A stretch of DNA of 64,000 nucleotides, taken from the NCBI RefSeq assembly GCF_001636345.1, contig NZ_KV440945.1, forward strand, positions 3,305,354 through 3,369,353. The letters run 5' to 3'. This DNA is from Cytobacillus gottheilii (GTDB lineage: Bacteria > Bacillota > Bacilli > Bacillales > Cytobacillaceae). A program made the position numbers and the translations under genes. Below are positions 14,093 through 17,726 of this stretch, in pieces. A model generated the notes under the pieces. It was not told where the DNA came from and made no database searches. It saw nothing but the letters and a program-made list of their open reading frames with translations. Numbering within the stretch: the first letter of the stretch is position 1; every line of letters begins with the position of its first letter.

Positions 14093-14112
14093 CAACTAAA
14101 TCGATTTAGTTG
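14093..14112 (+). promoter_or_regulatory. Perfect LacI-type operator palindrome
   Basis: CAACTAAATCGATTTAGTTG is a perfect 20-bp palindrome centred on CG, the hallmark of LacI-family sites. It ends 24 bp before the GTG start of the TIM-barrel gene, where bound repressor would block its transcription. The operator at 13963 shares its core. Confidence 0.82.
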
Positions 14113-14136
14113 TTAAATTGCCTGGGAGGTTCGATC

Positions 14137-14856
14137 GTGACAAAAGTAATTCTGCCAACACTCATTTTTACTAAACAACTTTCAATAGAAGAACAAGTGG
14201 CTATGATAAAGGAATTTGGTGCTGATGGCATTGAAATTCGCCGGGAGCGACTGGAGAATATCTCGGAGGATTTAAGGTTATTTAAACAGGAGATTGGTAT
14301 GGCGGTTTTTGATGCTGTCATTTATTCTGTTCCAGTAGAGTTATGGCAAGACCCTTTCTCTCTAAATCCGGATGCGATACGTGCATTAAAAGAAGCAGAA
14401 TTTCTAAATGCAACTCACATAAAGTTTTCACTAGGAAAATTTGACGCAAAACATGCTGATGCAAAAGGGTTTAAAGAATGGATCGCATCAAATCTGCCAA
14501 GTTCAATCAAGGTGTTAGTAGAAAATGATCAAACTCCTTATGGAGGAACGCTGAATTCGATCTTGTCTTTTTTTCAATGGCAAGAAGAAACGTCTATCCG
14601 GATGACTTTTGACGTTGGCAACTGGACTGTACAAGATGAAAACTGGAGTGCTGCCCATCAGGAACTAAGCACCTGGATCGAATATCTTCATTTAAAAACT
14701 GCAGCAAAAACGAATGAAGGCTGGGTTAATAAACCGGTGGATCTTGAACATTTAAAACTCCATTTTCCAGCGTATACAGCGATCGAATTTCCATTAGATA
14801 ACCCGGGGGTTGAGGCACCGCAGTGGATTGATATGATTAGGAGAGCAAATGGCTAA
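14137..14856 (+). CDS. Xylose-isomerase-like TIM-barrel sugar isomerase/epimerase
   Basis: The 239-aa protein has the fold of the AP-endonuclease-2/sugar phosphate isomerase-epimerase family: FGADGIEIRRERLE near residue 28, THIKFSLGKFD near residue 95, VLVENDQTPYGG near residue 125 with the metal Glu, MTFDVGNW near residue 155, LHLKTA near residue 185, and YTAIEFPLD near the end. Start GTG at 14137 with GGGAGG 7 bp upstream; an in-frame TTG at 14110 lies inside the operator and has no ribosome site. Divergent from the TRAP/HPS operon and sharing its operators, it probably supplies an epimerase or isomerase step for the same sugar. It is shorter than typical ketose 3-epimerases (about 290 aa). 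Confidence 0.72.
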   Translation: MTKVILPTLIFTKQLSIEEQVAMIKEFGADGIEIRRERLENISEDLRLFKQEIGMAVFDAVIYSVPVELWQDPFSLNPDAIRALKEAEFLNATHIKFSLGKFDAKHADAKGFKEWIASNLPSSIKVLVENDQTPYGGTLNSILSFFQWQEETSIRMTFDVGNWTVQDENWSAAHQELSTWIEYLHLKTAAKTNEGWVNKPVDLEHLKLHFPAYTAIEFPLDNPGVEAPQWIDMIRRANG

Positions 14857-14924: not shown

Positions 14925-15420
14925 TAAAGGGGAATTGTGGATGATATATGCGTAAGTAGACAGCGTTATCCAAATAAAGGTAATTAGGGGCGTAATAAAC
15001 GCTTAATCACGACAGCATTATCCAGAGAAAGGTAATTAGGGGCGTGATAAACGCTTAATCACGACAGTATTTTCCAGATAACGGTAATTAGGGGCGTGAT
15101 AAACGCTTAATCACGACAACATTTTCCAGAGAAAGGTAATTAGGGGCGTAATAAACGCTTAATCACGACAGTATTATCCAGATAACGGTAATTCGTGGCC
15201 TGATAACGCTTAATCACGACAGTATTATCCAGATAACGGTAATTCGTGGCGTGACAAACGCTTAATCACGACAGTATTATCCAGATAACGGTAATTCGCG
15301 GCCTGATAAACGCTTAATCACGACAGTATTATCCAGATAACGGTAATTCGTGGCCTGATAAACGCATAAACACGACAGTATTTTCCAGATAATAGAAACC
15401 AGTGGCATGATATGCTTAGT
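14925..15420. repeat. Tandem array of about nine 52-bp units with internal dyads
   Basis: GGTAATT starts recur at 14979, 15031, 15083, 15135, 15187, 15238, 15290 and 15342, a spacing of 52 bp except one 51-bp step caused by a lost A. Degenerate half-units flank both ends. Each unit contains a near-perfect palindrome, best seen as CGTGATAAACGCTTAATCACG minus its last base, and a second small inverted repeat TTATCCAGATAA. The array fills the gap between the TIM-barrel gene and the zinc-ribbon gene. No unique spacers exist, so it is not CRISPR. No open frame persists because 52 is not divisible by 3. Function unknown. Confidence 0.9.
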
Positions 15421-15553: not shown

Positions 15554-15796
15554 TTATTCCTCCAAAAGCTTCACGCTTTCACTTCCGCAATGATTACATG
15601 TCAGCAAATGCGGACACAATTGATCTCTATAATCATTTTGGTAGCCATCCTCCATTTTCATAAGATCTGTCGGCATGTACGCACTATAGTCATCATAATA
15701 ATCCATAATCTTGCCATGATCATTCATCTCTTTGCCGCATTTATTACATAATTCATGAAGCTCTCTAAAACCATTACATATTGAACAGACTCCCAT
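15554..15796 (-). CDS. Small zinc-ribbon-like protein
   Basis: This 80-aa acidic protein has three cysteine clusters: CSIC at residues 3-6, CNKC near residue 18, and CPHLLTCNHCG near residue 63. Paired CxxC motifs suggest one or two structural zinc sites. The start is set at the second ATG (15796) because the AGAGAGG site abuts the first (15803-15805) but is 9 bp from the second. The middle is rich in Asp and Tyr (DYYDDYSAYMP). I do not recognise a named family. It is transcribed away from sspB. Confidence 0.6.
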   Translation of the reverse strand: MGVCSICNGFRELHELCNKCGKEMNDHGKIMDYYDDYSAYMPTDLMKMEDGYQNDYRDQLCPHLLTCNHCGSESVKLLEE

Positions 15797-15884
15797 TGTT
15801 CCCATCCTCTCTAACGTTATAGGTAATGATAGGTTATGTAAAAAGTACGTTTTTTCAGATGGAAAAAATTACTGTATTTATTTC

Positions 15885-15913
15885 GCATAAACTTCTCAGA
15901 ATCAAACATAATA
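15885..15913 (+). promoter_or_regulatory. Sigma-G-type promoter of sspB
   Basis: GCATA (15885-15889) and CATAATA (15907-15913), 17 bp apart, fit the forespore sigma-G consensus. The predicted start near 15920 gives sspB an untranslated leader of about 135 nt, unusually long for a SASP gene, and that leader contains the tRNA-like element. Confidence 0.75.
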
Positions 15914-15959
15914 GTTAGTACAAACAGCGGGTCACACACACCGCAGCAACTTATACCGA

Positions 15960-16022
15960 TGGGTTAACCCACTAGATGGAGCAAGAGATCTTGCGCTGGT
16001 GCAAGTCCAGCTAACCCAACCA
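15960..16022 (+). ncRNA. tRNA-like cloverleaf in the sspB leader, ending in CCA
   Basis: The 63 nt fold into a cloverleaf. The acceptor stem TGGGTTA/TAACCCA has 7 perfect pairs and is followed by A and CCA at 16019-16022. A small D-like arm (CCA-loop-TGG, 15969-15979) comes first. A shortened anticodon-position arm (GCAAG AGAT CTTGC, 15981-15994) has only a 4-nt loop. A 5-bp T-arm with a 7-nt loop (GCTGG TGCAAGT CCAGC, 15995-16011) matches six of seven T-loop consensus positions. With no variable loop and no 7-nt anticodon loop it cannot be a decoding tRNA. It may be a tRNA mimic, processing signal or tRNA relic. Its location downstream of a sigma-G promoter places it in the sspB mRNA. Confidence 0.65.
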
Positions 16023-16057
16023 TCAAACAAAAAAATTCATGAGGAGATGAATCAAAA

Positions 16058-16276
16058 ATGACAAACCAAACATCAAGCAGAAGCAATTCCTCAAACCAAC
16101 TTTTAGTACCAGGAGTATCTCAAGCACTTGACCAAATGAAGTACGAAATCGCTTCAGAATTCGGTGTAAACTTAGGTGCTGAAACAACTTCACGCGCTAA
16201 CGGATCTGTCGGCGGTGAAATCACTAAACGCCTTGTGCAAATGGCTGAACAACAACTTGGCGGCGGTTCATTCTAA
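16058..16276 (+). CDS. sspB: Alpha/beta-type small acid-soluble spore protein
   Basis: This 72-aa protein is a typical DNA-binding alpha/beta SASP that coats spore DNA in the forespore and is degraded by the Gpr protease at germination. Family blocks are [23 protein letters not shown] split across residues 15-37, with the Gpr cleavage site in EIASEF, and [20 protein letters not shown] near residue 46. A GAGGAG site lies 11 bp upstream and a symmetric terminator follows. In B. subtilis sspB is part of the yhe cluster, which agrees with yheE/yheF and yheH/yheI in this window. Confidence 0.95.
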
Positions 16277-16314
16277 TATCATTTACATTTTGTAAAAAAT
16301 TTAATATTATGGCT

Positions 16315-16337
16315 TGGCCCCCTTATAAAGGGGGCCA
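16315..16337. terminator. Bidirectional terminator between sspB and fumC
   Basis: TGGCCCCCTT pairs with AAGGGGGCCA around ATA. The genes converge here, so it can serve both; the T-rich run is better on the sspB side. Confidence 0.75.
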
Positions 16338-16346
16338 TTTCCAATA

Positions 16347-17726
16347 TTAAACCATTTTTTGCGGATCAACCCATTGGTTAAATTCTGCTGTATTAACATA
16401 ACCCGTTTTTAGTGCAGCTTCCCGTAACGTAGTCCCTTCATTAAATGCCAGCTTCGCAATCTCCGCTGCTTTTTCATATCCAATATGAGGATTTAATGCT
16501 GTGACAAGCATAAGTGAATTCTGGACATGCTCTTGAATCATTTCAACATTTGCTTCCAAGCCGACCATGCAATTTTTGTTAAAAGAGGTCATTCCGTCCG
16601 CTAAAAGAGTGACGGATTGAATAAAGTTATAAATGATTACCGGCTTAAAAACATTCAATTCAAAATTCCCCTGACTCGCAGCAAAACCAATGGTTGCATC
16701 GTTTCCAAAGATCTGACTGGCGATCATCGTCAATGCCTCACTCTGTGTCGGGTTTACTTTCCCTGGCATGATGGAGCTGCCAGGTTCATTGGCAGGGATG
16801 GATAATTCACCAATTCCGCTGCGCGGTCCACTTGACAGCCACCTAACATCATTGGCTATTTTCATAAGATCAGCCGCCAGTGCCTTTAGTGTGCCATGAG
16901 CCTGCACCGTTTCACTATGACTCGTCAAAGCCTGGAATTTATTATCAGAGGATTTAAAAGGATAACCAGTAAAACTGGAAATTTCTTTGGCTGTTTCTTC
17001 TCCAAATTGTTTATGTGCATTAATTCCCGTTCCTACAGCAGTCCCGCCAATCGCAAGGTCTTGTAAGTATTTTAAAGCATCTGAAATCATGTGCTGATTT
17101 TTCTCAAGACTGCAGCGCCAGCCGCTGATTTCTTGTCCTAATGTGAGTGGTGTCGCATCCTGCAAATGTGTGCGCCCAATTTTAACGATCGATTGATATG
17201 CTTCTTCTTTTAATTTGATGGTTTGTTTAAGATCGTGCAAAGCAGGCAGGAGATTTTCTGAAAGCCCTTTGTATGCAGCAATATGCATAGCCGTCGGAAA
17301 AGTATCATTCGAGCTTTGTGACATATTGACATCATCATTCGGATGAATGTGCTCATCACTTTTCTCTGCTTCTAAAATTTCATTTCCCCTTTTCGCAATT
17401 ACTTCATTCATATTCATATTCGTTTGTGTTCCACTTCCTGTTTGCCATACTGATAAAGGAAAATGCGTATCCCATTTTCCTTCCAGGATTTCATCACAAG
17501 CTTTTACAATGGCCGAACTCTTTGCTTTTGACAATCCGCTTAATCTTTCATTCACGATTGCAGCTGATCTCTTTAAAACCGCGAAAGCATAGATTAGTTC
17601 CAATGGCATTTTTTCAATGCCGATATTAAAATTCTCCTTGCTCCTCTGCGTTTGGGCACCCCAATATTTATCCGCTGGAACATTGATCTCTCCAAGTGTA
17701 TCTCTTTCAATTCTATATTCACTCAT
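16347..17726 (-). CDS. fumC: Class II fumarate hydratase
   Basis: The 459-aa enzyme hydrates fumarate to malate in the TCA cycle. It carries the superfamily signature [15 protein letters not shown] near residue 317, [15 protein letters not shown] near residue 97, [15 protein letters not shown] near residue 137 and [16 protein letters not shown] near residue 185, all intact. The length equals the usual class II size (about 460 aa; B. subtilis CitG). It is monocistronic between sspB and the ABC exporter genes. Confidence 0.96.

What the first reader, a model, noticed from the sequence alone, without database searches (positions are those of the whole stretch)
15960..16022. tRNA-like cloverleaf with 3' CCA inside the leader of a sigma-G-dependent SASP gene
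A 63-nt segment has a perfect 7-bp acceptor stem, a single A then CCA, and a T-arm with 5 bp and a 7-nt loop that fits the tRNA consensus in six of seven places. A 3-bp D-like arm and a shrunken middle arm complete a cloverleaf. It cannot decode, since the middle loop has only four bases. It lies between a strong sigma-G promoter and the sspB start, so it should be part of the mRNA made in the forespore. It could be cut by RNase P or RNase Z, charged, or used to control SASP translation or mRNA decay. I know of no described element of this kind in SASP leaders.
Basis: partly seen in the sequence, partly recalled or inferred. Interest (0 to 1): 0.82.

Follow-up and report, generated by a model that had tools for sequence, protein, structure and literature searches.

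The report
tRNA-shaped leader on spore-protein mRNA
Just before a gene for a DNA-protecting spore protein lies a stretch whose predicted fold is that of a transfer RNA and which is conserved, with matching changes in its paired bases, across many Bacillus relatives; it would likely be cut by the tRNA-trimming enzyme RNase P and so is predicted to cap and protect the spore-protein messenger, a kind of control that none of our searches found described.

Summary
Window 15960-16022 gives the described cloverleaf as its predicted fold; a strict descriptor finds it once in the window and never in 150 simulated 64-kb sequences. It belongs to an undescribed RNA family. A covariance model finds it in 135 of 397 genomes of the order at a strict cut-off; one of the 135 is real tRNA-Gln. 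I read the flank in 81 of the 135: 79 lead into an open alpha/beta SASP frame. It occurs in 44 of 44 genomes of one Bacillus genus, including one that looks like B. subtilis 168, in the sspB leader. Seventeen of 20 pairs change on both sides. Acceptor stem, T-arm and RCCA are strongly conserved, the D-like arm partly, the middle arm only in pairing. The nearest tRNA is tRNA-Gln(UUG). Most likely mechanism (inferred, untested): RNase P reads the acceptor/T-arm/RCCA module and cuts at 15960, leaving the cloverleaf as a structured 5' cap on a forespore mRNA. Charging and RNase Z cleavage are less likely. Rfam 15 has no such family.

The parts
15885..15889 (+). sigma-G-like -35 element (GCATA)
   Evidence: sequence; consensus recalled
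15907..15913 (+). sigma-G-like -10 element (CATAATA), 17 nt downstream of the -35; transcription predicted to start near 15920
   Evidence: start site inferred from spacing
15920..15959 (+). predicted short leader upstream of the cloverleaf; it would be removed by the proposed RNase P cut
   Evidence: extent inferred
15957..15959 (+). conserved C-R-W trinucleotide just 5' of the cloverleaf (here CGA); role unexplained
   Evidence: C at -3 in 118, R at -2 in 133, W at -1 in 121 of 136 distinct elements; C at -3 in 1 of 27 tRNA leaders of the same genome
15960..16022 (+). tRNA-like cloverleaf (63 nt) ending in ACCA
15960..15966 (+). acceptor stem 5' strand UGGGUUA, pairs with 16012-16018; proposed RNase P cut is between 15959 and 15960
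   Evidence: pairs kept in relatives; the cut is inferred
15969..15979 (+). D-like arm (3 bp, 15969-15971 with 15977-15979, 5-nt loop)
15981..15994 (+). variable middle arm (5 bp, 4-nt loop), without an anticodon loop
15995..16011 (+). T-arm, 5 bp with loop UGCAAGU (G at position 55)
16012..16018 (+). acceptor stem 3' strand UAACCCA
16019..16022 (+). RCCA tail (ACCA), internal to the predicted mRNA
   Evidence: RCCA in 132 of 136 distinct elements
16041..16046 (+). Shine-Dalgarno-like sequence GAGGAG
16058..16276 (+). alpha/beta-type SASP gene (sspB-like), 72 aa
   Evidence: PF00269, 82.8 bits

Best explanation
The segment is a conserved tRNA-Gln-like cloverleaf ending in RCCA, placed between a sigma-G-like promoter and an sspB-like SASP gene, that is likely recognised as a substrate by RNase P and predicted to be cut at its 5' edge (between 15959 and 15960), which would leave the cloverleaf as a structured 5' cap that would protect the presumed forespore mRNA. 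Shown here: the predicted fold, its covariation, its repeated place before SASP genes, and the concentration of sequence conservation in the acceptor stem, T-arm and RCCA. Inferred: transcription from the promoter, recognition by RNase P, the cut, and the gain in mRNA stability or translation. The element probably arose from a tRNA-Gln gene (inferred from similarity); the middle arm then lost any anticodon, and in most species U55 became G.
For: 1) Constraint sits mostly where RNase P reads. Among 82 aligned rows G2, the T-stem GG/CC and U54 are invariant, C56 is kept in 79, A58 in 81, C75 and A76 in 81, and R73 and C74 in all 80 rows that have a letter there; the middle arm keeps pairing, not sequence. 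The stretch between acceptor and T-arm varies from 17 to 76 nt, while the 7+5 bp geometry is perfect in 102 of 136; the other 34 have one to three mismatched pairs or an indel. 2) PMC4919913 (passages): the RNase P ruler fits the T-stem-loop plus acceptor stem, the D-loop appears dispensable, the T-loop or a similar loop is needed. PMC12710915 (passages): a 3' RCC(A) pairs with RNase P RNA and is needed for cleavage of a non-tRNA substrate; RNase P also processes mRNAs and riboswitches. 3) Precedent in B. subtilis: RNase P affects the stability of pbuE mRNA (PMC2777011, passage and the title in its reference list). 4) Covariation: 17 of 20 pairs change on both sides, 250 double-change cells against 62.6 +- 9.7 in shuffles and at most 52 when slid; also on an alignment not fitted to the structure. 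5) 79 of 81 flanks read from the strict order hits lead into an open alpha/beta SASP frame; a -10-like motif lies within 90 nt upstream in 154 of 168 loci, against 486 of 3000 random stretches. 6) In this genome the element-trained model R1 scores the element first and tRNA-Gln(UUG) second; the third and last match is no tRNA (150 of 1684 first-look candidates were scored). All 13 fetched hits outside the order are tRNA-Gln. 7) 16 loci carry a second cloverleaf-like copy in tandem.
Against: No cleavage or mRNA data were available. RNase P does not need the near-invariant U1-A72 (131 of 136) or the GGG of the acceptor, which hints at a more sequence-specific partner. The D-like arm keeps its central C-G pair in 81 of 82 rows although the D-loop is said to be dispensable for RNase P. 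The C-R-W triplet just upstream is not typical of tRNA leaders in the same genome, and N-1 is U in only 59 of 136 elements against 22 of 27 tRNA genes. Recalled, not from a call: type B RNase P of B. subtilis depends less on the CCA contact than the E. coli enzyme. Only 1 of the 6 PF00269 genes of this genome has the element, so SASP mRNAs do not need it in general. The tandem second copies lack CCA.
Confidence: 0.46

Rival explanations
1. The cloverleaf is a passive structured 5' barrier that blocks 5'-to-3' decay or sets translation level, without RNase P cutting.
For: It lies a few tens of nt from the predicted start and 17-38 nt before the start codon in single-copy leaders; acceptor and T-arm are both in the predicted fold of 74 of 80 representatives.
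Against: A plain hairpin would do; this does not explain the kept T-loop, RCCA and 7+5 bp geometry.
Confidence: 0.2
2. A tRNA-binding factor other than RNase P binds it to control SASP translation, for example part of the Glu-tRNA(Gln) amidation pathway reading U1-A72, a ribosomal site, or a SASP feedback loop.
For: Closest tRNA is tRNA-Gln; U1-A72 in 131 of 136, which I recall as an identity element of the amidotransferase; the conserved D-like arm pair and the C-R-W motif need a reader.
Against: A1-U72 variants exist; there is no anticodon and the CCA end is not free.
Confidence: 0.2
3. The cloverleaf is released as a small tRNA-like RNA (cut at both sides) that acts in trans or is charged in the forespore, like a pseudo-tRNA.
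For: Encoded RCCA in 132 of 136; Bacillus cereus tRNAOther is a non-translating tRNA-like RNA (PMC3399842, passages).
Against: I saw no conserved motif in the A/U-rich bases after CCA; the middle arm varies freely.
Confidence: 0.1
4. A decayed tRNA-Gln gene without function.
For: Similarity to tRNA-Gln.
Against: Strong covariation and presence in tens of genera.
Confidence: 0.01

Closest known systems
tRNA-Gln(UUG) of the same genome
   Same: U1-A72, UGGG acceptor start, 5-bp T-arm with 7-nt loop, RCCA; the only tRNA among the three R1 matches in this genome
   Different: the element has no anticodon loop, a shorter D-like arm, mostly G55, and sits before a coding gene; ARAGORN and Rfam do not call it
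tmRNA tRNA-like domain
   Same: acceptor plus T-arm, no anticodon (recalled); 5' end processed by RNase P (PMC3985003, start of abstract in the listing)
   Different: no tag reading frame called here, alanine identity not tested; here it is the leader of an ordinary coding gene
Viral 3' tRNA-like structures (TYMV type)
   Same: tRNA mimic ending in CCA that is an RNase P substrate (PMC12710915, passages)
   Different: those lie at the 3' end of a viral RNA and need a pseudoknot; here it is a cloverleaf in a predicted 5' leader
mRNA structures cut by RNase P (B. subtilis pbuE leader; human IFNA5 mRNA)
   Same: mRNA structure read by a tRNA enzyme (PMC2777011, passage; PMC4565877, abstract)
   Different: I saw no RCCA tail or order-wide bacterial conservation in the parts I read; not compared by sequence
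Pseudo-tRNA tRNAOther of Bacillus cereus
   Same: tRNA-like RNA outside translation (PMC3399842, passages)
   Different: it has a Trp anticodon and flanks an island; not in a SASP leader
T-box leaders
   Same: tRNA biology in Firmicute mRNA leaders
   Different: a T-box binds tRNA; this element mimics one (recalled; no T-box match)

Membership tests
Canonical tRNA | called by tRNA finders | tested here: not met
   ARAGORN 0 genes in the window; no RF00005 match at E<=10 in 15800-16400
Canonical tRNA | anticodon arm with a 7-nt loop | tested here: not met
   4-nt loop here; length and sequence of this arm vary in relatives
Canonical tRNA | 7-bp acceptor, 5-bp T-arm with 7-nt loop, RCCA | tested here: met
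tmRNA | tmRNA called / tag frame | tested here: not met
   ARAGORN reports no tmRNA; no Rfam match at gathering score
Any Rfam 15 family | match at the gathering score | tested here: not met
   0 matches in the window; at E<=10 only a sub-threshold Twister-sister touches the element; in 19 relatives no match at E<=1 lies on the element
RNase P substrate | acceptor plus T-stem-loop module with RCCA | tested here: met
RNase P substrate | cleavage at the 5' end of the acceptor stem | not testable with these tools
   needs an enzyme assay or 5'-end mapping
RNase Z substrate | no CCA after the discriminator | tested here: not met
   RCCA in 132 of 136; the tandem second copies lack it
SASP-leader cloverleaf (family defined here) | covariance-model match followed by an alpha/beta SASP ORF | tested here: met
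   76.1 bits with R2 (this element was also in R2's training set); PF00269

The most novel reading that the evidence does not exclude
The spore DNA-protecting protein SspB of Bacillus and its kin is made from a tRNA-capped mRNA: a former tRNA-Gln gene was built into the promoter-proximal leader, RNase P matures the mRNA's 5' end as if it were a tRNA, and the tRNA fold serves as a cellular 5' cap for an mRNA that must outlast the drying forespore, a cap doubled in some genera.
Probability: 0.4. Interest if true: 0.93.

Novelty: new variant of a known kind. Interest (0 to 1): 0.82.

Why it matters
Alpha/beta SASPs shield spore DNA and are long-studied sporulation products (recalled), yet a covarying RNA structure, present in many families of the order and in what looks like the B. 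subtilis sspB leader, turned up in none of my literature searches (an open-licence library that lacks most subscription papers). If RNase P processes it, this would be a cellular mRNA with a tRNA-like 5' end as a regular, old trait, and a handle on how forespore mRNAs are stabilised and translated. It can be tested at once in a laboratory strain.

Tried and rejected
Chance fold: rejected. Decoding tRNA or tmRNA: rejected. Known Rfam family: none. Decayed tRNA: rejected by covariation. Repeat or mobile copy: a single strong copy in the genome; 1 of 6 PF00269 genes carries it. Pairing of the upstream C-R-W triplet with the bases after CCA: no consistent partner; left unexplained. A mini reading frame AUG-GGU-UAA across 15959 exists where -1 is A and the stem continues UAA, but not where -1 is U, and I saw no ribosome site before it here, so I did not pursue it. 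The first comparison with own tRNAs used line-wrapped ARAGORN output (discarded) and was redone (a few of its 33 sequences are off by a base at an end). The first alignment A1 had two misregistered rows (L016, L049) and a one-base offset (L004); A2 replaced it and dropped 11 of A1's 34 rows, those two and 9 divergent ones (A2 has 24 rows, L004 corrected). L223 was skipped in the position counts because its record is short and looked at alone later. Limits: no Clostridia were searched; the surveys over 40 genomes used stricter filters, so 135 of 397 (one of them tRNA-Gln) is probably a lower bound, and the 262 misses can include diverged elements (in the genus of G253 five genomes score only 34-37 bits).

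Full report
What was claimed.

The observation. The bases are as described. Folded alone, the segment gives exactly the cloverleaf as its minimum-energy structure (-23.2 kcal/mol, z -3.2, 2 of 200 shuffles as good), and the same fold appears in the leader 15920-16060. A strict descriptor hits only this place in the window and nothing in 150 simulated 64-kb sequences. ARAGORN and Rfam at gathering scores find nothing in the window; at E<=10 only a sub-threshold Twister-sister match touches the element (15.1 bits, cut-off 34). The gene downstream is an alpha/beta SASP (PF00269); fumarase C lies beyond it on the other strand. A sigma-G-like promoter (GCATA-17 nt-CATAATA) precedes the element (consensus recalled). 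The start near 15920 is inferred.

Relatives. The leader DNA matches at E 2.2e-7 or better in 34 of 35 same-genus genomes; the remaining one, G016, has only a 0.014 match downstream of the cloverleaf. In this genome 1 of 6 PF00269 genes has the element.

Survey. Model R2 (45 elements) was run on 397 genomes of the order. At E<=1e-3, 366 match, but this includes tRNA-Gln. At E<=5e-7, 135 of 397 match, in 50 of 135 genera; one, G081, is tRNA-Gln (three tandem genes). I read the flank in 81 of the 135: 79 lead to an open alpha/beta SASP frame, one (L189) to a SASP-like sequence whose frame is interrupted, one is G081. In a sample of 398 genomes of the class, 72 match at E<=1e-5; 40 of these lie outside the order, every match listed from them is 75 nt long, and the 13 that I fetched are all tRNA-Gln by ARAGORN. 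So I have no evidence of the element outside the order at that cut-off. No Clostridia were searched.

Bacillus subtilis. In the genus of G253, each of 44 genomes has a listed hit whose length is not the 75 nt of tRNA-Gln, five of them only at 34-37 bits. I fetched 43 of the 44, and 43 of 43 are followed by an open SASP frame (42 by the script, L223 looked at alone). G458 is a single contig of 4,215,606 bases, the length I recall for strain 168; its element is 72 nt and lies 26 nt before a SASP ORF that begins MANQNSSNDLLVPGAAQAIDQMK, which I recall as SspB.

Structure test. On A2, a MAFFT alignment of 24 not fitted to structure, 95.5% of cells pair and 27 cells change on both sides against 9.0 +- 3.9 in shuffles (0 of 500) and at most 10 when slid; the count of further pair types is not above shuffles there (209 of 500). 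On A4 (45 elements) 14 of 20 pairs change on both sides. On A5 (82 rows from 80 sources, fitted to the model and so leaning to it) 17 of 20 do, with 250 such cells against 62.6 +- 9.7 and at most 52 when slid. For A5 I used 79 of 80 representatives (L211 dropped as not a SASP leader) and added L263; two rows are second copies. In 74 of 80 representatives the single-sequence fold holds both the acceptor and T-arm; in leader context 65 of 80.

What is conserved. Over 136 distinct elements (from 157 loci, L223 skipped): RCCA 132, U1-A72 131, U54 with A58 133, C56 131, G55 122, U55 13. Perfect 7+5 bp in 102 of 136; the other 34 have one to three mismatched pairs or an indel. The stretch between acceptor and T-arm varies from 17 to 76 nt. 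The D-like arm is partly fixed: its central C-G pair is in 81 of 82 rows. Four later loci of family f45 carry a UUC T-loop (L284-L287), so G55 is common but not required. Upstream, C at -3 in 118, R at -2 in 133 and W at -1 in 121 of 136; 27 CCA-bearing tRNA genes of this genome show C at -3 in 1 and U at -1 in 22. I cannot explain this triplet. Sixteen loci have a long spacer with a second cloverleaf-like copy between the first and the gene, without CCA; a script that re-found 12 of them kept the second T-arm and acceptor in the predicted fold in 10, by a loose count.

Origin. In its own genome R1 scores the element 78.1 bits, tRNA-Gln(UUG) 33.6 bits and one other place, no tRNA, 15.1 bits (150 of 1684 first-look candidates scored). 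In direct comparison tRNA-Gln is first of 33 tRNA sequences (26 of 35 positions in acceptor, T-arm and tail; tRNA-Ile is next with 24). Descent from tRNA-Gln is an inference.

How it likely works. The part kept most strictly is what RNase P reads: acceptor stem, T-arm and RCCA (PMC4919913 and PMC12710915, passages). The anticodon, which decoding needs, is missing. CCA discourages RNase Z. I therefore infer a cut at 15960 that leaves the cloverleaf as a 5' cap. A base-paired 5' monophosphate end resists 5'-end-dependent decay (recalled). RNase P is known to affect an mRNA's stability in B. subtilis (PMC2777011, passage). Against this stand the near-invariant U1-A72 and GGG, the fixed D-arm pair and the C-R-W triplet, which RNase P is not known to demand. 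On checking I lowered the mechanism's confidence by 0.01 and raised the other-factor rival by 0.02 because of the D-arm pair.

Novelty. Searches for a described element listed no paper that, by title or abstract start, deals with a tRNA-like SASP leader; two RNA-discovery papers have no hit for acid-soluble or tRNA-like in their text. The library lacks most subscription papers, which include the older SASP literature. I call it a new variant of a known kind: tRNA mimics are known; this place, taxon range and architecture are not, as far as I could search.

Noticed in passing
14959-15392: Tandem array of a 52-bp unit, 8.4 copies, 91% matches, between the ORF at 14110-14856 and the SASP region.
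   Followed up: no
L211 (G232) 601-673: A stand-alone tRNA-Gln-like gene with CCA, a sigma-G-like promoter upstream and a terminator-like hairpin right after it, not followed by a SASP gene; ARAGORN calls it tRNA-Leu(cag). It may be a forespore-specific tRNA or tRNA-like RNA.
   Followed up: partly
L025, L028, L030, L031, L038, L050, L066, L073, L155, L156, L160, L161, L165, L171, L197, L198: Second cloverleaf-like copy in tandem, without CCA, next to the SASP gene (some spacers are identical, and in L031, L156 and L171 the predicted fold of the spacer does not show it cleanly).
   Followed up: partly
15957-15959: Conserved C-R-W triplet directly upstream of the cloverleaf in relatives, not typical of tRNA leaders of this genome.
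   Followed up: partly
L189 (G069): Cloverleaf with an enlarged middle arm (111 nt in all) before a SASP-like sequence whose reading frame is interrupted.
   Followed up: no
15554-15805 (-): An 83-aa ORF with several Cys pairs, divergent from the SASP gene, without a Pfam match.
   Followed up: no
L016 1409-1467 and L049 1415-1478: SASP leaders with a cloverleaf-like element whose acceptor stem is entirely different (GGACUAU) but keeps ACCA and a UUC T-loop; weak R1 matches.
   Followed up: no
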